Source: Candidatus Bathyarchaeota archaeon (GTDB lineage Archaea > Thermoproteota > Bathyarchaeia > RBG-16-48-13 > GCA-020345945). From it: a stretch of 13,030 bases of DNA. Under the pieces are notes generated by a model. The model saw only the letters and a program-made list of their open reading frames with translations, was not told where the DNA came from and did no database searches. Where the stretch lies: the NCBI GenBank assembly GCA_020345945.1, contig CP070773.1, positions 1,045,998 to 1,059,027 of the forward strand. Reading direction: 5' to 3'. The first letter of the stretch is position 1; every line of letters starts with the position of its first letter. Made by a program: the position numbers and the translations under genes. Positions 1 through 12,648 of the stretch are shown one piece after another.

Positions 1-370
1 GCTTGATTCTTTGATTGAACTTACTGGAGCCAAGTCTGTAAACTACTTGGAAAAACGGCAGTGCTGTGGGGCTCCTACGATGGGGGTAGATGAGAAACTC
101 TCTCTCCAGATCGTCAGGAAAAAGCTCCAGAGCATTCAGGAGGCTAAGGTGGATGCCATAGTTACGGTCTGCCCCTTCTGCCACACTCATCTTGATCTAA
201 ACCAGATACGAATAGAGGAAGACTATGGGGAGAGCTATGGAATACCAGTTCTTCACTATACTCAACTTCTAGGTCTAGCCCAAGGCTATGATCCAAATGA
301 CCTAGGATTCTACGAGAATCGAGTTATGGCTGACGAGTTGCTGGATCTGATACACAACAAGGAGGATTAG
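1..370 (+). CDS. hdrB: HdrB-like heterodisulfide reductase subunit B, C-terminal part (5' end outside window)
   Basis: The reading frame is open to the left edge, so this is the C-terminal ~122 residues of a longer protein. It carries the second half of a CCG domain: adjacent cysteines at bases 62-67 in QCCGAPTMG, then 34 residues, then CPFC at 170-181. This CC-X34-C-X2-C pattern is the non-cubane iron-sulfur ligand set of HdrB, the subunit that in methanogens reduces the CoM-S-S-CoB disulfide. The stop overlaps nothing, but the hdrA start follows by 2 bases, so the two are co-transcribed. HdrC is not in the window and may lie upstream. The substrate here is unknown: the CCG domain is also found in sHdrB, in succinate- or lactate-linked oxidoreductases and in other thiol/disulfide enzymes. 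Pairing with HdrA makes HdrB the best call. Confidence 0.85.
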   Translation, partial: LDSLIELTGAKSVNYLEKRQCCGAPTMGVDEKLSLQIVRKKLQSIQEAKVDAIVTVCPFCHTHLDLNQIRIEEDYGESYGIPVLHYTQLLGLAQGYDPNDLGFYENRVMADELLDLIHNKED

Positions 371-372
371 GA

Positions 373-3300
373 ATGGGAGATGAACCACGTATCGGTGTAT
401 ACATCTGTCATTGTGGTGGAAACATTAGCGACACCGTGAATGTAGAAGCTGCGAAGAAATCTTCCAAGGCTATCAAGGGAGTCGAGGTCGCAGAGACAAC
501 GAAGTACGTCTGTAGCAACCTTGGTCAGAACATGATAAGACAGGGAATAAAGGAACATAAGCTCAATAGGATTGTTGTGGCTTCATGCTCACCCAGACTG
601 CACCTTGAGACGTTTAGACGGACCGTGAAATTGGAGGGATTAAACCCATACCTTCTCGAGATGGTGAACATAAGAGAACACTGCAGCTGGATCCACGATG
701 ATATTGAAAAAGCTACTCTCAAAGCAACCGATCTTCTTCGCGGTGCAGTAGGGCGTGCTCAGTATCTTGAACCCTTGGAACCAAGAAAGGTGAAGGTAAA
801 CAGGGACATCTTGGTCATTGGCGGAGGTATTGCAGGGATCACTGCGGCAACTGAACTCGCCGACAACGGCTATCAAGTCTGCCTTGTAGAGAAGTCATCG
901 AGTATTGGCGGTCATATGGCTCAGCTCAGCAAGACTTTTCCAACACTTGACTGTTCATCCTGCATTCTAACGCCAATGATGGTGTATGCAGTACAACATC
1001 CAAACATCAAGATTCTTTCCATGAGTGAAGTTGTCTCTGTCGAAGGCTCACCCGGAAACTACCGGGTCTCTGTCGTAAAGCATCCCAGATTTGTCGACGA
1101 AGAAAACTGTACAGCTTGTGGTGAATGCTCGAATGAATGCCCGGTGGAAGTTCCCAGCGAGTTTGAGGAAGGAATCGGTACACGTAAGGCCATATACGTT
1201 CCTTTCCCACAGGCTATACCAAACTCCTACTTGATAGATAAGAGAGGAACCCCGCCGTGTAGGTCTGCGTGTCCCGCTGGTGTCAACGTACAAGGCTACG
1301 TCGCACTCATCTCTCAAGGCAAGTTCAAAGAGGCTCTTGAACTGATCAGAAGAGATAATCCCTTCCCCGCCGTCTGTGGCAGGGTCTGCTTCCACCCCTG
1401 TGAGAAAGAATGTAAACGCAACGAGGTCGACGAACCTCTGGCTATCAACGCTCTTAAACGGTTCGTAGCCGATCGTGAGCTAACCCTCAGTACAGAGAAA
1501 ACTGAACCCATACCCCTAATCCATGAAGAGAAGATTGCAGTAGTAGGATCAGGACCTGCCGGACTTACAGCTGCCCGTGAACTAGCTAAATTGGGGTATC
1601 CGGTCACAGTCTTTGAATCCTTACCGAAACCCGGTGGCATGCTAAGGGTAGGTATTCCGAGCTATAGGCTTCCAAAGGATATACTCGATAAGGAAATCGG
1701 CCTGATAGAGAGTCTTGGTGTCAAGATCAAGAATAACATAGAAATCGGTAAAAAACTAACGATCAATGATCTCCGCCAGCAAGGTTACGCTGCGGTGTTC
1801 TTCGCAGTTGGCGTTCAAGAATGCCGAAGACTGAGAATAGATGGGGAAGACCTTGTAGGCGTAATACCTGCACTGGAGTTCCTAAAACAGGCTAACCTAG
1901 GTAGACGTGAAAAAGTTGGACGAAAAGTGGTGGTAATTGGTGGCGGAAATGTCGCTATCGATGCAGCAAGAACCGCTCTAAGAAGCAATGCAAAAGAGGT
2001 CTCCATCCTATATCGAAGATCGAGAGAGGAGATGCCTGCATATTCCACTGAGGTAGAAGAGGCAGTGAGAGAAGGAGTCAAAATCCATTATCTCGTTTCA
2101 CCCAAGAAAATCCTAGGAAAGAAACATGTCAACTCTATAGAATGTATTAGAATGCAGTTGGGAGAACCTGACGAGTCTGGACGAAAACGTCCCGTACCAA
2201 TAGAAGGTTCTGAGTTCACTGTTGAAGCTGACACAATAATCCCGGCAGTTGGACAGTCCCTTGAGATCTCCCTGGTACCCAAAAAGATGAAGCTCTCACA
2301 GGAGAAGACGATCGTTGTCGACCCTATTACGCTCCAGACGAATATATCGTTCGTATTTGCTGGGGGGGATGCGGTAACAGGAGAGGCTACCATCGTCGAT
2401 GCGATAGCCCAAGGAAAGAAGGCTGCCGTATCTATCGACCGCTACCTTAGAGGCGAAGATATGGAGGTCGAGAGAGGAGAACTCCCCCCAGTAGTCGAAG
2501 AGGTTCCCAAGGAAAATGTGGCGAAAGTACCTAGACAAGTGATGCCTAAACTTCCCCTTGACCAGAGAACCATTAACAAAGAAGTGGAACTCGGATTTAC
2601 AGAAGAAATGGCGTTGAAAGAAGCCAAGAGATGCCTTGCTTGCGGAGGATGCTCAGAATGTCTAGAATGTGAGAAAGTATGTGAGATAGAGGGATGCATA
2701 GATCATCATCAGAAAGAAGAGACATATGAACTAGACGTGGGTGCTATTATTGTCTCCACTGGCTTCGAACAGATCAATCCAAAAAACCTGGGGGAGTATA
2801 GTTTCGGGGAGCACCCAGACATAATTACCAACCTGCAATTTGAACGCCTAATGATACAAGGAATACGCAAGCCATCCGATGGGAAGAAACCTAGAAAAGT
2901 AGCCTTCGTACTCTGTGTCGGAAGTCGCATGTTGAACGGAGATACTGGTGAGAAACACTGCTGCAAGATAGGCTGTATGGTCGCGATAAAACAGGCCAAA
3001 CTGTTGCAGAAAGCTATACCTGAGGCTGAACCGTGGATCTTCTACGTCGACGTAAGGGCTGACGGAAAAGGTTACGAAGAGTTCTACATGGATGCCCAGG
3101 AACACGGCGTACAGTTTGTCAGAGGTCGAGTAGCAGAGGTTCTCCCTACCGACGGAGGAGTCTTGGTGAGGGCTGAAGACACCTCTCTCGGAACACTGAT
3201 TGAGGGAAACTTCGATCTAGTAGTCTTGAGCTCAGAGATTGTTCCCCATGTATCAACTCAAGATATCGCCAGACGACTTGGTATTCACATAGGATCGGAC

Positions 3301-4131
3301 GGTTTCTTCCTAGAGAGACACTACAAGCTTAAACCCGTTGACAGCCGACGACCAGGAATATATCTCAGTGGATGTGCGCTTGGCCCCAAAGATGTGAGAG
3401 AGACTACTCTTGAAGCGATGTCGACAGCTTTACGGGCTGCAACTTTCCTAGGAACTGGTGAAATCTCGCTCTCCCCAGAGGTGGCTTCCATAGATCTATC
3501 AACATGCAATGATTGCCGGGAGTGCGTGGATTTCTGTCCTGCAGGTGCCATCGAAGACACGTCGGAAGGATTGGTAGTCAACCCTATATCGTGTATTGGG
3601 TGTGGGATGTGTGTGCCCCGGTGTTCCCAACAGGCAATCGATCTTCACCACTGTAACGAAGCTCAACTGCTGGCTCAAATCCATAACCTTAGCAAGGAAG
3701 GGGAGTCGCCGAGGATAATTGCCTTTCTTGAAGGCAATACTGCTTATGCCTCTGCGGACCTTGCTGGACAGACCCGGCTGGACTATTCTCCGCTTATCAA
3801 AATAATCCGTGTTCCAAGTACTGGGCGGGTCGGCTTTAACCATGTTTTGAACGCCTTCTCCTCTGGCGCTGACGGTGTAGTATTCATTGAAGGGGACGAC
3901 AGTGTCTTCGACGAAGAGAAGTTGAGAAAACATGTCATTGACCTGAAGAAAGAGTTGAAAGAATATGGGGTTAATCCCCTGCGTTTGATTCATACTACAA
4001 CCACGATCCCACAATACGACAAGATCTTAAATCTATTCGAGACTTTTGTTGAAAGAATCTCCAAGATGGGAGTCCTCTCTAGAGACGAACGCTCAAGAAT
4101 CAAAGAAGAAATAATGGAAGCAAAGAAATGA
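373..4131 (+). CDS. hdrA: HdrA flavoprotein fused to an NfnB/GltD-like NAD(P)H oxidoreductase module and a degenerate MvhD domain
   Basis: This is the electron-bifurcating flavoprotein of a heterodisulfide reductase-type complex, unusually long at 1252 aa (typical HdrA is ~650). Domain order by residue: HdrA N-terminal domain 1-135 (Cys12/14/47/72); first half of the FAD domain, VIGGGIAG at 148-155 and LDCSSCILTP at 192-201; first ferredoxin cluster Cys246/249/252/256; inserted NfnB/GltD module ~293-694; cysteine-rich segment 754-775; second half of the FAD domain ~785-1030 with CVGSR at 848-852; two [4Fe-4S] motifs, Cys1045/1048/1051/1055 and Cys1074/1077/1080/1084; and an MvhD/FlpD-like C-terminal domain 1113-1232. 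The inserted module has its own FAD motif (VVGSGPAG, 390-397), an NAD(P)H motif (GGGNVAIDAART, 523-534, then YRRSREEMPA, 547-556) and a second FAD motif (FAGGDA, 662-667). The MvhD-like domain has no cysteine left. GGAGG at 361-365 sets the start. A soluble cytoplasmic complex with HdrB is expected. The electron donor (NADH or NADPH) and acceptors are inferred, not shown. Confidence 0.9.
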   Translation: MGDEPRIGVYICHCGGNISDTVNVEAAKKSSKAIKGVEVAETTKYVCSNLGQNMIRQGIKEHKLNRIVVASCSPRLHLETFRRTVKLEGLNPYLLEMVNIREHCSWIHDDIEKATLKATDLLRGAVGRAQYLEPLEPRKVKVNRDILVIGGGIAGITAATELADNGYQVCLVEKSSSIGGHMAQLSKTFPTLDCSSCILTPMMVYAVQHPNIKILSMSEVVSVEGSPGNYRVSVVKHPRFVDEENCTACGECSNECPVEVPSEFEEGIGTRKAIYVPFPQAIPNSYLIDKRGTPPCRSACPAGVNVQGYVALISQGKFKEALELIRRDNPFPAVCGRVCFHPCEKECKRNEVDEPLAINALKRFVADRELTLSTEKTEPIPLIHEEKIAVVGSGPAGLTAARELAKLGYPVTVFESLPKPGGMLRVGIPSYRLPKDILDKEIGLIESLGVKIKNNIEIGKKLTINDLRQQGYAAVFFAVGVQECRRLRIDGEDLVGVIPALEFLKQANLGRREKVGRKVVVIGGGNVAIDAARTALRSNAKEVSILYRRSREEMPAYSTEVEEAVREGVKIHYLVSPKKILGKKHVNSIECIRMQLGEPDESGRKRPVPIEGSEFTVEADTIIPAVGQSLEISLVPKKMKLSQEKTIVVDPITLQTNISFVFAGGDAVTGEATIVDAIAQGKKAAVSIDRYLRGEDMEVERGELPPVVEEVPKENVAKVPRQVMPKLPLDQRTINKEVELGFTEEMALKEAKRCLACGGCSECLECEKVCEIEGCIDHHQKEETYELDVGAIIVSTGFEQINPKNLGEYSFGEHPDIITNLQFERLMIQGIRKPSDGKKPRKVAFVLCVGSRMLNGDTGEKHCCKIGCMVAIKQAKLLQKAIPEAEPWIFYVDVRADGKGYEEFYMDAQEHGVQFVRGRVAEVLPTDGGVLVRAEDTSLGTLIEGNFDLVVLSSEIVPHVSTQDIARRLGIHIGSDGFFLERHYKLKPVDSRRPGIYLSGCALGPKDVRETTLEAMSTALRAATFLGTGEISLSPEVASIDLSTCNDCRECVDFCPAGAIEDTSEGLVVNPISCIGCGMCVPRCSQQAIDLHHCNEAQLLAQIHNLSKEGESPRIIAFLEGNTAYASADLAGQTRLDYSPLIKIIRVPSTGRVGFNHVLNAFSSGADGVVFIEGDDSVFDEEKLRKHVIDLKKELKEYGVNPLRLIHTTTTIPQYDKILNLFETFVERISKMGVLSRDERSRIKEEIMEAKK

Positions 4132-4186
4132 CTAGTCGTTTCTTAGTCAAAATATCCTGTAAAATGGAATCAAGGAGAGATATGCG

Positions 4187-4621
4187 ATGACTAAACTATT
4201 TGGAAAATATGAGTATCCTGAAGGACTGTACTACTCGAGAGATCATCTCTGGGCCAAGATTGAAGATGGGAAGGTCCGGGTTGGACTTACCGATTTCGCA
4301 CGGCAGATCTCTGGCAAGATCAGGTCTATTCGTCTAAGACCTCCTGAACGTACAGTTGAACAAGGCAGAACTCTTGGGACTATGGAGACAGGGAAATGGG
4401 TAGGTCCAATAAAATCACCGATTAGTGGAACCATCCTTGAGAACAACTCAGTCTTAAGGAGAAAGGCTAGTCTACTTAACGAGGATTCATATGGACAGGG
4501 CTGGGTCTCTCTGCTTCAGCCTATAAACCTTGAAGAAGAACTGAAGCTATTGATGACTGAGATTGATGAGTCCTGGCTTCGACAAGAGATGGAGAAATAC
4601 GGAGAAGAAGAACAACCCTGA
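4187..4621 (+). CDS. GcvH-like lipoyl carrier protein (possible lipoate-binding protein, LbpA-like)
   Basis: This 144-aa protein has the GcvH fold signature: YSRDHLWAKIEDGKVRVGLT near residues 16-35 and LLNEDSYGQGW at 96-106. The lipoylation lysine is Lys70 in TMETGKWVGPIKSP, aligned with the ESVKAASD segment of glycine cleavage H proteins. The C-terminal ~25 residues form an acidic helical tail beyond the usual end. In glycine cleavage the H protein carries aminomethyl groups between P, T and L proteins. None of those is in this window; instead it sits between hdrBA and an OsmC-like gene, with a lipoate ligase downstream. The residues around Lys70 differ from standard GcvH, which fits a lipoate-binding protein dedicated to an Hdr-type complex, though an ordinary GcvH cannot be excluded. 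GGAGAG at 4174-4179, 7 bases upstream, supports this ATG. It lies 55 bases after hdrA and is probably in the same operon. Confidence 0.85.
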   Translation: MTKLFGKYEYPEGLYYSRDHLWAKIEDGKVRVGLTDFARQISGKIRSIRLRPPERTVEQGRTLGTMETGKWVGPIKSPISGTILENNSVLRRKASLLNEDSYGQGWVSLLQPINLEEELKLLMTEIDESWLRQEMEKYGEEEQP

Positions 4622-4702
4622 TTCCCGTATCGCTTCAGAGGCTTTCCTGGAGTGTACTTGATTAGTGCCAAGGGATGGGGATGGTTATAGGGGAAGACAA
4701 GA

Positions 4703-5152
4703 ATGACGAAGTTCCCTAAAAAGGTGAAGTACGATATCAATTTGGTTTGGGACATGGAAAGCGGAGGAGATGTCTATTTCAAGCGTTCTCCGAAGCTGAA
4801 ACTAGATATGCCGGTAGAGTTCGGTGGCAAGGGCAGGTCTCCGTGTCCAGACGAGTACTTCCTATCAGCGGTTGGCGGATGTTATCTCACAACTTTTCTA
4901 TACTTCAAGGAAAGGCTAGGACTAAAACCGAGAGATTTAAGGGTGACAGTCCAGGCAACAGCGAATTACTTTGCACCTAAGGGCTATAGAATCACAGAGA
5001 TAATGGTCTTTATGCAGGTCGATGTAGATGAAGAAGAAAAGGAGAAAGCTGAAGAGTGCATAGAACTGACGATAGAACACTGCCACTTGACCCGTTCAAT
5101 GGAACAGGGACTTCCCATCAAGGTAGTACCCAACGTAAGGGTTCATAGCTGA
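4703..5152 (+). CDS. OsmC/Ohr-family protein (thiol peroxidase-like)
   Basis: This 149-aa protein matches the OsmC fold in length and layout. It has a GGKGRSPCPDEYFLSAVGGC segment (residues 41-60) and a C-terminal EHCHLTRSM segment (125-133). Cys60 and Cys127 fall where the peroxidatic and resolving cysteines of OsmC/Ohr lie (about 60 and 125). The pair suggests hydroperoxide reduction or another thiol/persulfide reaction in the cytoplasm. Ohr/OsmC enzymes are known to be reduced by lipoylated proteins rather than by thioredoxin, which makes the position between a lipoyl carrier gene and a lipoate ligase gene notable. Additional cysteines at 48 and 119 are of unknown role. A purine-rich GGGGA at 4690-4694 precedes the ATG by 8 bases. 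Many archaeal OsmC-like proteins have no proven activity, so the peroxidase role is inference. Confidence 0.85.
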   Translation: MTKFPKKVKYDINLVWDMESGGDVYFKRSPKLKLDMPVEFGGKGRSPCPDEYFLSAVGGCYLTTFLYFKERLGLKPRDLRVTVQATANYFAPKGYRITEIMVFMQVDVDEEEKEKAEECIELTIEHCHLTRSMEQGLPIKVVPNVRVHS

Positions 5153-5192
5153 TAACTTTCTTCAAATCAAGACTTGAACTGGTGACGCATCT

Positions 5193-6299
5193 ATGAGGAA
5201 GTGGAGGTTGATCGATATGGGCACAGCCAGACCTTTTGTCGCCCAGACTTTCTATGAGGCCGTTGCTGAGGCTGTCGATCGAGGTTTATCCCCAAACACG
5301 ATAATTCTAGTCCAACCCTCAGATCCCTACGTATGCATAGGCTTCCACCAAGAGGTTGAACGGGAGATCGATCTCGAGTACTGTCGAAGCAGAGGCCTTC
5401 CGATTATCAGAAGATCTCAGGGAGGTGGTGCAGTATACCTCGATAGCAACCAGCTCTTCTATCAAGTAGTAGCAAAGGATCAGAATGAGACTATCCCTAC
5501 GCGGGTAGAAAGACTCTTTGAGAGGCTTCTGAAGGTGACGGTCTATGTTTACAGAAGGCTTGGTTTACCTGCGAAGTTCAAGCCGTTGAACGACGTCATT
5601 GTGAATGGAAGAAAGATCTCCGGAAACGGGGCTAGCAGACTTGGAAACGGGACAACAATCCTAGTCGGCAATATAATCCTAGACCTAGACTACGATTCGA
5701 TGGCTAGCGTCCTGAAGGTTCCAAGCGAAAAGTTCAGAGACAAGATAGCTAAGAACATGAAAGATTGGGTTACCTCGCTGAATAGAGAACTAGGCTTCGT
5801 CCCATCCCAAGATGAGGTCAAGACGTCTCTAGTAGAGGGTTACGAGAAGGTCTTGAGAATCAAACTTATCGAGTCTGGGATCACTGAGGCTGAGAGAAGG
5901 ATATGGGAAGATGAGATTGAACCGAGACATCTCTCCATGGAATGGCTGTACATGCCTGAGTTGAGACACAAAGAGCTCCTAGAAGGAAGAAAAGTGAAGA
6001 TCGCTGAAGGCATACATGTAGTTGAGACTGATCACAAAGCACAGAAGTTGATAAGAATAAGGGCGGCTCTTAGGGAGACCAGAATAATTGACATAATGGT
6101 AACGGGCGACTTCTTCATGGTGCCCGAGGAAGCCCTCCAAGATCTAGAGTTAAGACTAAAGGGGGTATCCCTGAATAAGGACGAAGTCTTAGGTAGAGTT
6201 CGAAGGTTTTATGAGAGTAGTAAAGTTCAGACCCCTGGATTGACTCAAGAAGAACTCGCAGAGGCTATAATGAAATTAGGGGAATTCGCAGAGATCTAA
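5193..6299 (+). CDS. lplA: Lipoate-protein ligase A with fused C-terminal accessory (LplB-like) domain
   Basis: Attaches lipoate (or octanoate) to carrier lysines, using ATP to form lipoyl-AMP. The N-terminal catalytic domain (~1-250) has the lipoate-binding RRSQGGGAVYLD motif at 73-84 and the catalytic-lysine segment NGRKISGNG at 138-146 (Lys141). The C-terminal ~100 residues (from about 268) resemble the accessory domain: KLIRIRAALRETRI then GDFFMVPEE near 305-313. In some archaea (e.g. Thermoplasma) the two domains are separate LplA and LplB proteins; here one 368-aa chain holds both. The usual histidine after GGGAVY (HDLG in many LplA) is leucine in this protein (LDSN). GGTGA at 5181-5185 supports the ATG. 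The gene follows the OsmC gene by 40 bases in the same direction. The lipoyl carrier two genes upstream is the obvious substrate. It is the last gene before a new promoter. Confidence 0.9.
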   Translation: MRKWRLIDMGTARPFVAQTFYEAVAEAVDRGLSPNTIILVQPSDPYVCIGFHQEVEREIDLEYCRSRGLPIIRRSQGGGAVYLDSNQLFYQVVAKDQNETIPTRVERLFERLLKVTVYVYRRLGLPAKFKPLNDVIVNGRKISGNGASRLGNGTTILVGNIILDLDYDSMASVLKVPSEKFRDKIAKNMKDWVTSLNRELGFVPSQDEVKTSLVEGYEKVLRIKLIESGITEAERRIWEDEIEPRHLSMEWLYMPELRHKELLEGRKVKIAEGIHVVETDHKAQKLIRIRAALRETRIIDIMVTGDFFMVPEEALQDLELRLKGVSLNKDEVLGRVRRFYESSKVQTPGLTQEELAEAIMKLGEFAEI

Positions 6300-9900: not shown

Positions 9901-12648
9901 ATGTCCTCAATATTTGATGTCGAACTCTTCGGAGAGAAAGGCTTCAAGAGGAAGAAGTGTCCCACCTGTGGGCGGTTCTTTTGGACATTAAACCCGGAGA
10001 TAGAACTTTGCGGTGATCAGCCTTGTGTCGAGTATAGTTTCCTCGGGAATCCTCCAGTCCAATCCTCTTTTACACTCACTGATGTCCGCGAAACATTTCT
10101 CTCATTCTTCGAGGAGCATGGACATGAACGTATTGGACGATATCCCGTTGTAGCGAGATGGAGAGACGATGTTTTCCTAGTTGGAGCTTCGATATACGAC
10201 TTCCAGCCTTGGGTAACAAGTGGTGCTGTCCCTCCTCCTGCGAATCCCCTTACAATCTCTCAACCTTCGATAAGGCTGACAGACATAGACAACGTCGGAC
10301 GAACTGGAAGGCACTTGACGGAATTTGAGATGATGGCTCATCATGCCTTCAACTTCGGTGACAAAGAGATCTATTGGAACAACCGGACAGTCGAGCTCTG
10401 TTTCGATCTTTTCACAGATAGAATAGGAATTCCCTCCGACAAGTTGACTTTTATTGAGGATCTCTGGCAAGGCGGAGGTAATGCTGGAGAAGACTTCGAA
10501 GTTTTGGTCGACGGCTGTGAGATAGCAACACTCGTCTTCATGCAATACAAGGTACAGAACGGTGACCTTGTCCCAATGTCGACAAAGGTTGTGGACACTG
10601 GGTACGGCCTTCAAAGAATTCTTTGGTTAACTAAAGGAACTCCCACAATCTACGACGCGATCTTCGGAGACGTTCTGGGCTTCCTGAGGGGAGAGATCGG
10701 TCTCGGAAGACCGGAGGAACAGATCTTTCTCGAAGCCTCTAAGCTTTCAGGCCAGATGGAACTGAGCAGCAAGGAGAGTAGATCAAAACTAAGAGCAAAG
10801 ATCGCCTCAAGGATCGATATAGCACCCGATGAACTTGAGAGCTTGATGCATCCTCATGAGCTTGTATATGCAATAGCGGATCACACACATGCTCTTATCT
10901 TCATGATGGGTGACGGGGTTGTCCCCTCTAATGTTGGCGCCGGTTATCTGGCAAGGCTCTTGATCCGGAAATCCTTGAGATACTTCCGAGAGTTAGGCTT
11001 AGAACTCCCCTTGAGAGAACTCGTCAGTCGTCAGATACAAACTCTAACGTTAGACTTCCCTGAATTCAAGGAGATCTCAGACGAGATACTAGAGATAGTT
11101 GATGTAGAAGAGGATAGACATCGACAGGTATTGAAAAGAGGTGAAGTCCTCGTCAGAAGAATCGCGAAGGATCTCCAAGGCAAAAAAACCTCAAAAATAC
11201 CAACTGGAAGACTGGTTGAGTTTTACGATTCCCACGGACTCACTCCTGGCTTTGTCAAAGATATCGCTGAAGGACAAGGTGTTCAAGTCTCAATCCCCGA
11301 GGATTTCTATGCTCAAGTCGCTGCAAGACATGAGAAGCCAAAATCTGAGGTGGAGGATTCGATGACCTTTGAGGATCTAGGTGAGAAAATCTCTGGTATT
11401 CCGCCGACTAAGTTATTGTTCTATGAGGATCCCTATCTAGACTCTTTCTCAGCAAAAGTCCTTAAAGTAATCGATAATGGGTGGGTTGTCCTAGATCAAA
11501 CCGCATTCTACTCTGAGGGAGGAGGTCAGCCTGCGGATCATGGAATTATGAAATCCGCCCAAGGAGAAGGTAAGGTTGAGAATACCCAAAGGATCGGAAA
11601 TACCATTCTTCATCTCCTGAAGGACTCTGTACCCGCGGTGGGGGAGACTGTCTCCTGCGTAGTTGATTGGGATCGAAGAAAGAGACTGATGCGAAGTCAT
11701 ACCGCTACCCACATAGTAAACGGGGCTGCACGAAGAGTCTTGGGACAACATGTCTGGCAATGTGGAGCTCAGAAAGGACTAGATGTCAATCGATTAGACA
11801 TTACACACCACAAGCATCTGAATGCTGAACAAGTCAAAGAGATCGAGATGACCGCGAACTCTTTTCTCGTTACTAATACCACGGTTAATGTTTCTTTTGT
11901 CCCCCGTGAAGAAGCCGAGCAGAAGTATGGCTTTAGGCTTTACCAAGGAGGGGCTGTTCCGGGAAGAGAGATCCGTGTAGTACAGATAGGTGACTGGGAG
12001 GTAGAAGCTTGCGGGGGAACCCACTGTCGTTCAACAGGTGAGGTCGGGCTGATCAAGCTGTTGCGTTCAGAGAGGATTCAAGACGGTGTTGAGAGGTTGG
12101 TATATGCTGTCGGGCCATCCGCTGTGGAACTGATCCAAGAGAGAGATATGCTTCTTGAAACGGCTTCATCACTTCTCGGAGTTCCCATACTAAAGGTAGA
12201 TTCAGCCTTAGAGTCTGTTCTTGATATCAACCGTAATACAGAGAAGCGGCTCAGACAAGTTGAAGGAGAACTTTCAGGGCTCCTAGCATCCAGTCTTCTT
12301 GAAAACGCTGAAGAAGTCTCAGGATTCAAACTCATCACGTACTCCCGCCCACTTGAAGACATAGATTTCCTAATAGACCTAGGTGGAGTACTCTCACAAA
12401 GAGAACCGAAGGTCGTCTCTGTTCTTTTCGCAGTCGGAGATACAGCTCGGATCATCGTGACAGTTGGAGACGCGGCAGTCAACTCTGGTATCCATGCTGG
12501 AAAAATCGCGGAGACCCTCTCTAAAAGCCTTGGTGGGGGTGGAGGGGGAAAAGCAGACTTCGGTCAGGGGGGCGGTCCAAAAGTAGATTTGGTGTCCAAG
12601 ATAGCGTCCTCCCTCGAAGAACTCATCCGTTCCCAAGCAGGCAGCTAG
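9901..12648 (+). CDS. alaS: Alanyl-tRNA synthetase, archaeal type
   Basis: Charges tRNA-Ala and edits mischarged Ser/Gly. The 915-aa protein has an archaeal N-terminal extension with four cysteines (Cys20, Cys23, Cys37, Cys42) likely to bind zinc. The class II catalytic core follows (for example SQPSIRLTDIDNVG and LTEFEMMAHHAFNFG, then VPSNVGAGYLARLLIRKSLR). The editing domain shows HTATH at 600-604 and CGGTH at 704-708, which together supply the usual zinc ligands. The C-terminal DHHA1-type region ends in a glycine-rich GGGGGGKADFGQGGGPK segment. AGGTG at 9889-9893 lies 7 bases before the ATG. The gene follows L12 in the same direction after 238 bases and converges with the next gene at 11 bases. 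Length and motifs are complete. Confidence 0.97.
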   Translation: MSSIFDVELFGEKGFKRKKCPTCGRFFWTLNPEIELCGDQPCVEYSFLGNPPVQSSFTLTDVRETFLSFFEEHGHERIGRYPVVARWRDDVFLVGASIYDFQPWVTSGAVPPPANPLTISQPSIRLTDIDNVGRTGRHLTEFEMMAHHAFNFGDKEIYWNNRTVELCFDLFTDRIGIPSDKLTFIEDLWQGGGNAGEDFEVLVDGCEIATLVFMQYKVQNGDLVPMSTKVVDTGYGLQRILWLTKGTPTIYDAIFGDVLGFLRGEIGLGRPEEQIFLEASKLSGQMELSSKESRSKLRAKIASRIDIAPDELESLMHPHELVYAIADHTHALIFMMGDGVVPSNVGAGYLARLLIRKSLRYFRELGLELPLRELVSRQIQTLTLDFPEFKEISDEILEIVDVEEDRHRQVLKRGEVLVRRIAKDLQGKKTSKIPTGRLVEFYDSHGLTPGFVKDIAEGQGVQVSIPEDFYAQVAARHEKPKSEVEDSMTFEDLGEKISGIPPTKLLFYEDPYLDSFSAKVLKVIDNGWVVLDQTAFYSEGGGQPADHGIMKSAQGEGKVENTQRIGNTILHLLKDSVPAVGETVSCVVDWDRRKRLMRSHTATHIVNGAARRVLGQHVWQCGAQKGLDVNRLDITHHKHLNAEQVKEIEMTANSFLVTNTTVNVSFVPREEAEQKYGFRLYQGGAVPGREIRVVQIGDWEVEACGGTHCRSTGEVGLIKLLRSERIQDGVERLVYAVGPSAVELIQERDMLLETASSLLGVPILKVDSALESVLDINRNTEKRLRQVEGELSGLLASSLLENAEEVSGFKLITYSRPLEDIDFLIDLGGVLSQREPKVVSVLFAVGDTARIIVTVGDAAVNSGIHAGKIAETLSKSLGGGGGGKADFGQGGGPKVDLVSKIASSLEELIRSQAGS

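What the first reader, a model, noticed from the sequence alone, without database searches (positions are those of the whole stretch)
1..6299. HdrBA, a lipoyl carrier, an OsmC-like protein and a lipoate ligase in one run: a candidate lipoyl-linked redox system
Seen: five same-strand genes with short gaps (2, 55, 81 and 40 bases) join an Hdr pair to a lipoylatable protein, a dithiol peroxidase-like protein and the enzyme that would lipoylate the carrier; no glycine cleavage P, T or L gene is present. Known: sulfur oxidizers use sHdr complexes with lipoate-binding proteins and a dedicated lipoate ligase. Inference: here a differently built, NAD(P)H-linked HdrBA may reduce or oxidise protein-bound lipoamide in place of CoM-S-S-CoB. 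This may be an undescribed variant of the Hdr-Lbp theme in a non-sulfur-oxidizing archaeon.
Basis: partly seen in the sequence, partly recalled or inferred. Interest (0 to 1): 0.75.

Follow-up and report, generated by a model that had tools for sequence, protein, structure and literature searches.

The report
Lipoyl redox carrier coupled to Hdr
An archaeal gene cluster joins an iron-sulfur disulfide reductase to a small protein built to carry lipoic acid and to the enzyme that would load it, and similar clusters in other archaea suggest that protein-bound lipoic acid may serve there as a redox shuttle outside its textbook roles.

Summary
The five-gene run is real: hdrB (cut by the contig start), hdrA with an inserted NAD(P)H (GltD/NfnB-like) module, a GcvH-fold carrier with a lipoyl-type lysine, OsmC and a two-domain lipoate ligase. 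The carrier is not the glycine-cleavage H protein: 71.9 bits against a 115.85 cut-off, and the genome has gcvT-gcvH beside a gcvP piece elsewhere. It belongs to a 'KW' type (E[ST]xKW at the lysine) in Bathyarchaeota, Asgard archaea, Nitrososphaerota and a few bacteria. Of 76 KW loci, 48 have Hdr/CCG-type disulfide reductase genes within eight genes, against 0 of 20 canonical gcvH loci; a flavin disulfide reductase lies beside 16 of 20 canonical but 0 of 76 KW genes. Best reading: a lipoylated redox carrier for Hdr/CCG enzymes. Against exclusivity: 0 of 18 related HdrA loci had a carrier nearby. Prior art: Hdr-LbpA of sulfur oxidizers, HdrA with this insertion, and a 2022 suggestion for Culexarchaeia that GcvH offers the disulfide to HdrB. 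New variant of a known kind; no biochemistry; direction of electron flow unknown.

The parts
2..370 (+). HdrB, C-terminal part (start cut by the contig end)
   Evidence: CCG 56.4 bits, TIGR03288 126.6 bits to its last third; one CC-x35ish-CxxC motif present; N gap directly before the window
373..4131 (+). HdrA, 1252 residues
   Evidence: NF040770 843.8 bits; methanogen HdrA 5odc 623.9 bits; four CxxCxxCxxxC motifs
1249..2472 (+). GltD/NfnB-like NAD(P)H module inserted in HdrA (about residues 293-700)
   Evidence: Fer4_20 and Pyr_redox_2; NfnA 9n5u 425.8 bits over residues 294-700; GGGNVA motif
3715..4071 (+). FlpD/MvhD-like tail of HdrA without the cluster cysteines
   Evidence: PF02662 82 bits, residues 1115-1233; no cysteine in the printed last 150 residues
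4187..4621 (+). KW-type GcvH-fold lipoyl carrier, 144 residues
   Evidence: GCV_H 100.9 bits; below the GcvH equivalog cut-off; METGKWVGPIKSP around the lysine, no cysteine
4394..4396 (+). codon of K70, the predicted lipoylation site
   Evidence: invariant in all 13 rows of A1 and all 53 rows of A2, window included; aligned with the lysine of canonical GcvH
4703..5152 (+). OsmC-family protein
   Evidence: PF02566 56.7 bits; two OsmC-type cysteines kept in 7 of 7 carrier-linked copies
5193..6299 (+). lipoate-protein ligase, LplA domain plus LplB-like C-terminus
   Evidence: PF21948 143.9 bits, LplB 61.5 bits against cut-off 65; 51-65% identical to the ligases next to KW carriers at 12 other loci, but 33% and 27% to the two other own-genome ligases

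Best explanation
The run encodes a dedicated lipoyl-protein redox system. The ligase attaches octanoate or lipoate to K70 of the carrier; LipS1/LipS2, encoded elsewhere in the genome, would insert the sulfur atoms if octanoate is used. The lipoyl disulfide/dithiol arm then visits HdrB, whose CCG (non-cubane cluster) site exchanges two electrons with it, as it does with CoM-S-S-CoB in methanogens. HdrA links that couple to NAD(P)H through its GltD/NfnB-like insertion and its FAD, possibly with bifurcation to a low-potential carrier. OsmC probably uses the dithiol (peroxide or other thiol chemistry). Shown: gene content, lysine, motifs, recurrence of the neighbourhood. Inferred: lipoylation, physical contact, the reaction and its direction.
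For: Same strand, short gaps. Carrier fails the GcvH cut-off while both other own copies pass. 48 of 76 KW loci have CCG, HdrA, HdrC or MvhD genes within 8 genes, 0 of 20 canonical gcvH controls (Fisher p 1.5e-7). A pyridine-nucleotide flavin disulfide reductase lies within 3 genes of 16 of 20 canonical and 0 of 76 KW genes. Ligase or LipS genes within 8 genes: 29 of 76 against 2 of 20 (p 0.017). The window's ligase belongs with the ligases next to KW carriers at 12 other loci. Own genome has LipS2 and LipS1. G123, 67% identical in the carrier, has hdrC-hdrB-HTH-carrier-OsmC-LipS2-LipS1-ligase-LipT-like with hdrA divergent.
Against: From HdrA's side the link is weak: 0 of 18 other Bathyarchaeia loci with related HdrA tails show a carrier within 7 genes. 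The insertion-bearing HdrA was seen beside a carrier only in the window; two further cases rest on equal contig lengths. 28 of 76 KW loci have no CCG/Hdr/MvhD gene in view, some on short contigs. In 11 other genomes of the same order the best hit was 104.3 bits, far below 219.6 in G123; their motifs were not read. No biochemistry.
Confidence: 0.58

Rival explanations
1. Sulfur handling as in the sHdr-LbpA system: the lipoyl arm carries sulfane sulfur to an Hdr-like complex that oxidises it.
For: Same cast: Hdr-type proteins, GcvH-like carrier, dedicated ligase, LipS1/S2 (PMC6067878 passages and section 5; PMC10332631 passages).
Against: HdrA is full-length methanogen type (5odc 623.9 bits; 6tjr 149.3 bits; that 6tjr is sHdrA is recalled). 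The carrier has no cysteine, whereas the paper reports two conserved ones except in some archaeal LbpA. TusA not found in the own genome (66% complete). TusA-like genes near 3 of 76 KW loci. DsrE was not searched. No LbpA of a sulfur oxidizer was compared.
Confidence: 0.1
2. Hdr stands in for the L protein of glycine cleavage: the carrier is an H protein and HdrABC reoxidises its dihydrolipoyl arm.
For: GcvH fold and lysine. No dihydrolipoamide dehydrogenase over the family cut-off was seen in the own genome (best 142.6 bits, cut-off 408.8).
Against: The gcvT/gcvP genes have their own gcvH beside them. The window carrier fails the GcvH cut-off. KW loci were not scanned for gcvP or gcvT with profiles, but none was noted among the recurrent clusters that I named.
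Confidence: 0.12
3. Neighbours without a joint reaction: the carrier, OsmC and ligase form one unit and Hdr, which has another disulfide substrate, lies beside it by history.
For: 0 of 18 related HdrA loci have a carrier. In 20 of 76 loci the ligase is next to the carrier, with varied redox partners. OsmC lies within 8 genes in 7 of 9 rows of the window's carrier clade.
Against: Partners vary, but CCG/Hdr-type reductases recur at 48 of 76 loci against 0 of 20 controls; same strand and short gaps here.
Confidence: 0.2

Closest known systems
sHdr-LbpA sulfur oxidation with sLpl(AB)-LipS1/S2 (PMC6067878, PMC10332631)
   Same: Hdr-type proteins, GcvH-like lipoyl carrier and dedicated ligase in one neighbourhood
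   Different: Full-length HdrA with NAD(P)H module, carrier without cysteine, TusA not found in the own genome
Ehe cluster of Culexarchaeia (PMC9723716): hydrogenase, HdrBC, HdrA2B2C2 and GcvH
   Same: GcvH encoded with Hdr in a non-methanogen; authors suggest that its lipoyl moiety meets HdrB
   Different: Membrane hydrogenase, SdhA and CdhA there; here a NAD(P)H-module HdrA, OsmC and ligase. Culexarchaeia sequences were not compared
Type III HdrA / HdrA9-11 (PMC12054007, PMC9012536)
   Same: GltD/NfnB-like insertion in HdrA; reported also from Bathyarchaeota, there with mvhADG
   Different: Here beside a lipoyl carrier; FlpD-like tail without cluster cysteines; GGGNVA motif, where the paper reports GXGXXG in type III
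Glycine cleavage H protein
   Same: Fold and lysine position
   Different: Below the equivalog cut-off, KW setting, other neighbours

Membership tests
sHdr-LbpA sulfur oxidation | Carrier with conserved lipoyl lysine | tested here: met
   K70 invariant in all 53 rows
sHdr-LbpA sulfur oxidation | Two conserved cysteines in LbpA (except some archaeal ones) | tested here: not met
   No cysteine in the window carrier; rule from PMC6067878
sHdr-LbpA sulfur oxidation | Lipoate ligase in or near the hdr-lbpA cluster | tested here: met
   LplA 40 bases after OsmC in the same run
sHdr-LbpA sulfur oxidation | Short sHdrA-type subunit (recalled: 6tjr) | tested here: not met
   1252-residue HdrA, 623.9 bits to 5odc against 149.3 to 6tjr
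sHdr-LbpA sulfur oxidation | TusA/DsrE sulfur-transfer genes | tested here: inconclusive
   TusA not found in a 66% complete genome; DsrE not searched
Glycine cleavage H protein | GCV_H domain | tested here: met
   100.9 bits
Glycine cleavage H protein | GcvH equivalog score (TIGR00527) | tested here: not met
   71.9 against cut-off 115.85; both other own copies pass
Glycine cleavage H protein | Linked to gcvT/gcvP | tested here: not met
   None in the window; gcvT and a gcvPB piece lie beside another gcvH
HdrABC with type III HdrA | HdrA with inserted GltD-type module | tested here: met
HdrABC with type III HdrA | HdrB with CCG motifs and HdrC | tested here: inconclusive
   One CCG motif in the part present; hdrC and the rest of hdrB lie beyond the contig end
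HdrABC with type III HdrA | CoM-S-S-CoB as substrate | tested here: inconclusive
   McrA not found in a 66% complete genome; substrate not testable here
Lpl(AB)-LipS1/S2 lipoate assembly | Ligase with LplA and LplB parts, LipS1 and LipS2 in the genome | tested here: met
   LplA 143.9 bits, LplB 61.5 bits just under cut-off 65; LipS2 338.8 bits over cut-off; LipS1 339.9 bits with a profile built here
OsmC/Ohr lipoyl-dependent peroxidase | Two catalytic cysteines | tested here: met
   7 of 7
OsmC/Ohr lipoyl-dependent peroxidase | Active-site Arg and Glu of Ohr | tested here: inconclusive
   Arg position lies before the aligned part and no equivalent was recognised; Asp at the Glu position in the Ohr alignment, followed by Glu
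OsmC/Ohr lipoyl-dependent peroxidase | Peroxidase activity with lipoyl protein | not testable with these tools
   needs an assay

The most novel reading that the evidence does not exclude
Protein-bound lipoate is a general thiol/disulfide electron currency in many uncultured archaea and some anaerobic bacteria, filling the place that CoM and CoB hold in methanogens. KW-type carriers are its mobile holders, and interchangeable CCG/Hdr modules plug into it: HdrABC with NAD(P)H or hydrogen, FAD-oxidase plus CCG protein for 2-hydroxyacid-like substrates, DsrM-like membrane modules, and OsmC as an outlet.
Probability: 0.35. Interest if true: 0.85.

Novelty: new variant of a known kind. Interest (0 to 1): 0.62.

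Why it matters
The disulfide substrate of Hdr complexes in non-methanogenic archaea is an open question (stated as unknown in PMC9723716). A lipoyl carrier with its own ligase gives a concrete, testable candidate. If true, lipoate would extend from a swinging arm inside enzyme complexes, and from sulfur oxidation, to a redox shuttle in Bathyarchaeia and Asgard archaea.

Tried and rejected
Upstream link to another gcvH: a second gcvH lies about 0.5 kb before the window, after an HdrA-MvhD cluster, but a 100-N run lies between, so this adjacency is not evidence.

Cysteine-free FlpD tail as a mark of carrier-linked HdrA: rejected. In 18 other Bathyarchaeia HdrA loci (the 17 next-best tail hits after the window and G123:C72, plus one lower hit, three between them not fetched), the last 150 residues hold 0-2 cysteines and no carrier was found within 7 genes. 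Some of these contigs end near HdrA.

KW type as one clade: not supported. The tree needs 4 changes of that label and has few columns for its rows. OsmC against controls alone is not significant (7 of 76 against 0 of 20, p 0.34); its weight comes from the window's clade.

Contig identity: the protein that I read as alanyl-tRNA synthetase on this contig is nearest to G003 of another family of the class (57%); best in the same order 48%. The contig fits the class; its place in the bin is unsure.

Not done: no LbpA of a sulfur oxidizer and no Culexarchaeia GcvH was fetched or compared. A structure job for the carrier was accepted but had not finished when last asked; nothing rests on it.

Limits of the counts: the profiles were built from the KW loci themselves. 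Five of the 80 loci were dropped because no reading frame with the motif was recognised (L099, L118, L120, L121, L126). The 80 are the best of a capped list. Many contigs are short, and Thorarchaeota supply 20 of 76 rows. Counting hydrogenase and Nuo-type genes too gives 54 of 76; the control figure of 0 of 20 leaves hydrogenase out, and the listing shows a hydrogenase-like gene in 3 of those 20. The collapsed Fisher test used approximate group counts and is not relied on. Controls: 20 regions picked from lower-scoring hits plus L005; 19 of the 20 regions and L005 held an ES[VI]KA carrier; L142 (ESVKS) was left out. The flavin reductase search used one query protein.
Full report
WHAT IS THERE. 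The window holds five + strand genes with gaps of 2, 55, 81 and 40 bases. They are the C-terminal part of HdrB, a 1252-residue HdrA, a GcvH-fold protein, an OsmC protein and a lipoate ligase with LplA and LplB-like parts. The window begins directly after a 100-N run, so hdrB is cut and what lies upstream is uncertain. After the ligase come a gap of 300 bases and Spt5; the next genes look like ribosomal proteins and alanyl-tRNA synthetase (read by eye).

HdrA. The core matches methanogen HdrA (5odc, 623.9 bits); residues 294-700 match NfnA/GltD-type modules (9n5u, 425.8 bits). It has four CxxCxxCxxxC motifs. Its FlpD-like tail has lost the cluster cysteines. Twelve of those 120 are longer than 1200 residues, and 8 of the 12 have no cysteine in the last 150 residues.

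THE CARRIER. Around the lysine it reads METGKWVGPIKSP, against ESIKAVSDVYSP in the genome's gcvT-linked GcvH. The lysine is invariant in all 53 rows of an alignment of relatives, window included. It fails the GcvH equivalog cut-off (71.9 against 115.85 bits), while both other own-genome copies pass (155.5 and 127.1). It has no cysteine. The genome also has LipS2, LipS1 and two more ligases, so lipoate assembly is plausible. McrA and TusA were not found in this 66% complete genome.

RELATIVES. A search of 201 genomes of the class and of GTDB species genomes (best 80 of a capped list) shows KW-type carriers in Bathyarchaeota, several Asgard groups, Nitrososphaerota, Geothermarchaeota and a few bacteria (names). 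In 76 loci (window plus 75 of 80), within 8 genes: CCG 46, HdrA 16, HdrC 10, MvhD 7, FAD-oxidase 29, ligase 27 (next to the carrier in 20), LipS1 9, LipS2 6, LipT-like 6, OsmC 7; any of CCG/HdrA/HdrC/MvhD 48. Among 20 canonical gcvH loci: 0 with these, 2 with ligase or LipS genes, 0 with OsmC. A flavin disulfide reductase (Pyr_redox_2 plus dimerisation domain; superfamily of dihydrolipoamide dehydrogenase, but similar neighbours score below that family's cut-off) lies within three genes of 16 of 20 canonical and 0 of 76 KW genes. The two carrier types thus keep different kinds of disulfide reductase beside them.

THE NEAREST RELATIVES. G123 (67% carrier identity; its contig has the length and match position of the Bathyarchaeota record L056) has a hydrogenase large-subunit gene at the contig start, a divergent hdrA without insertion, then hdrC-hdrB-HTH-carrier-OsmC-LipS2-LipS1-ligase-LipT-like. 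LipS1 is over its family cut-off, LipS2 below it. In the window's carrier clade (9 rows, support 90/74) OsmC lies within 8 genes in 7; of the other two, L061 ends at the carrier and L065 shows none. L062 holds in one stretch ligase, LipS1, LipS2, a CCG/FAD-oxidase pair, OsmC, the carrier, a CCG protein paired with a protein without Pfam match, hydrogenase, MvhD, HdrA, HdrB and HdrC. The window's ligase is 51-65% identical to ligases next to KW carriers at 12 other loci, but 33% and 27% to the other two own ligases.

HOW IT PROBABLY WORKS. The ligase modifies K70; the lipoyl arm exchanges two electrons at the HdrB CCG site; HdrA passes them to or from NAD(P)H. GGGNVA would favour NADP(H) by the rule in PMC12054007, if that rule applies to this motif. 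OsmC, with both cysteines, could draw on the dithiol as Ohr proteins do (recalled; one search is a listing only). Everything after gene content and motifs is inferred.

AGAINST. Starting from HdrA instead, 18 other Bathyarchaeia loci with related tails show no carrier within 7 genes. The insertion-bearing HdrA was seen beside a carrier only in the window. In 11 other genomes of the same order the best carrier hit was 104.3 bits, against 219.6 in G123. So the link is strong from the carrier's side and weak from HdrA's side.

WHAT IS KNOWN. Hdr with lipoate-binding proteins is established in sulfur oxidizers (PMC6067878: passages and section 5; PMC10332631: passages). HdrA with this insertion is described (PMC9012536 passages; PMC12054007 passages and section 7 part 1). 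HdrA2 with fused MvhD has a [2Fe-2S] cluster there (PMC5296606 passages), unlike this tail. A GcvH-borne disulfide for HdrB was suggested for Culexarchaeia (PMC9723716 passages). Searches of the held library listed no paper whose title or shown abstract reports the wider KW-type pattern; I read only the papers named here, and subscription papers and preprints were not covered.

VERDICT.

Noticed in passing
L057, L058, L059, L062 (for example L058:13081-13482 and L058:16828-17196): GcvH-fold paralogs beside CCG proteins in which the lipoyl lysine is replaced by Arg or Met; seven form a branch with support 100/98. They cannot be lipoylated there and may be docking subunits (inference).
   Followed up: partly
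Thorarchaeota loci such as L104, L107, L127: The KW carrier is followed on the other strand by a gene that I read by eye as Orc1/Cdc6, then an FAD-oxidase and a CCG gene.
   Followed up: no
L038, L039, L046: Carrier preceded by a weakly DsrM-like gene, a CCG gene and a CtaB-like gene.
   Followed up: no
L128, L130 (Syntrophomonadaceae): Acetoin-dehydrogenase-like genes and LipB/LipA-like genes (read by eye) lie next to a KW carrier, FAD-oxidase, CCG, ligase and LipS genes.
   Followed up: no
window 9901-12648: The protein read as alanyl-tRNA synthetase is nearest to another family of the class (57%) rather than the same order (best 48%).
   Followed up: partly
L097, L113 (Borrarchaeum): KW carrier with a gene that I read as TusA seven genes away and no Hdr/CCG gene within eight.
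   Followed up: no
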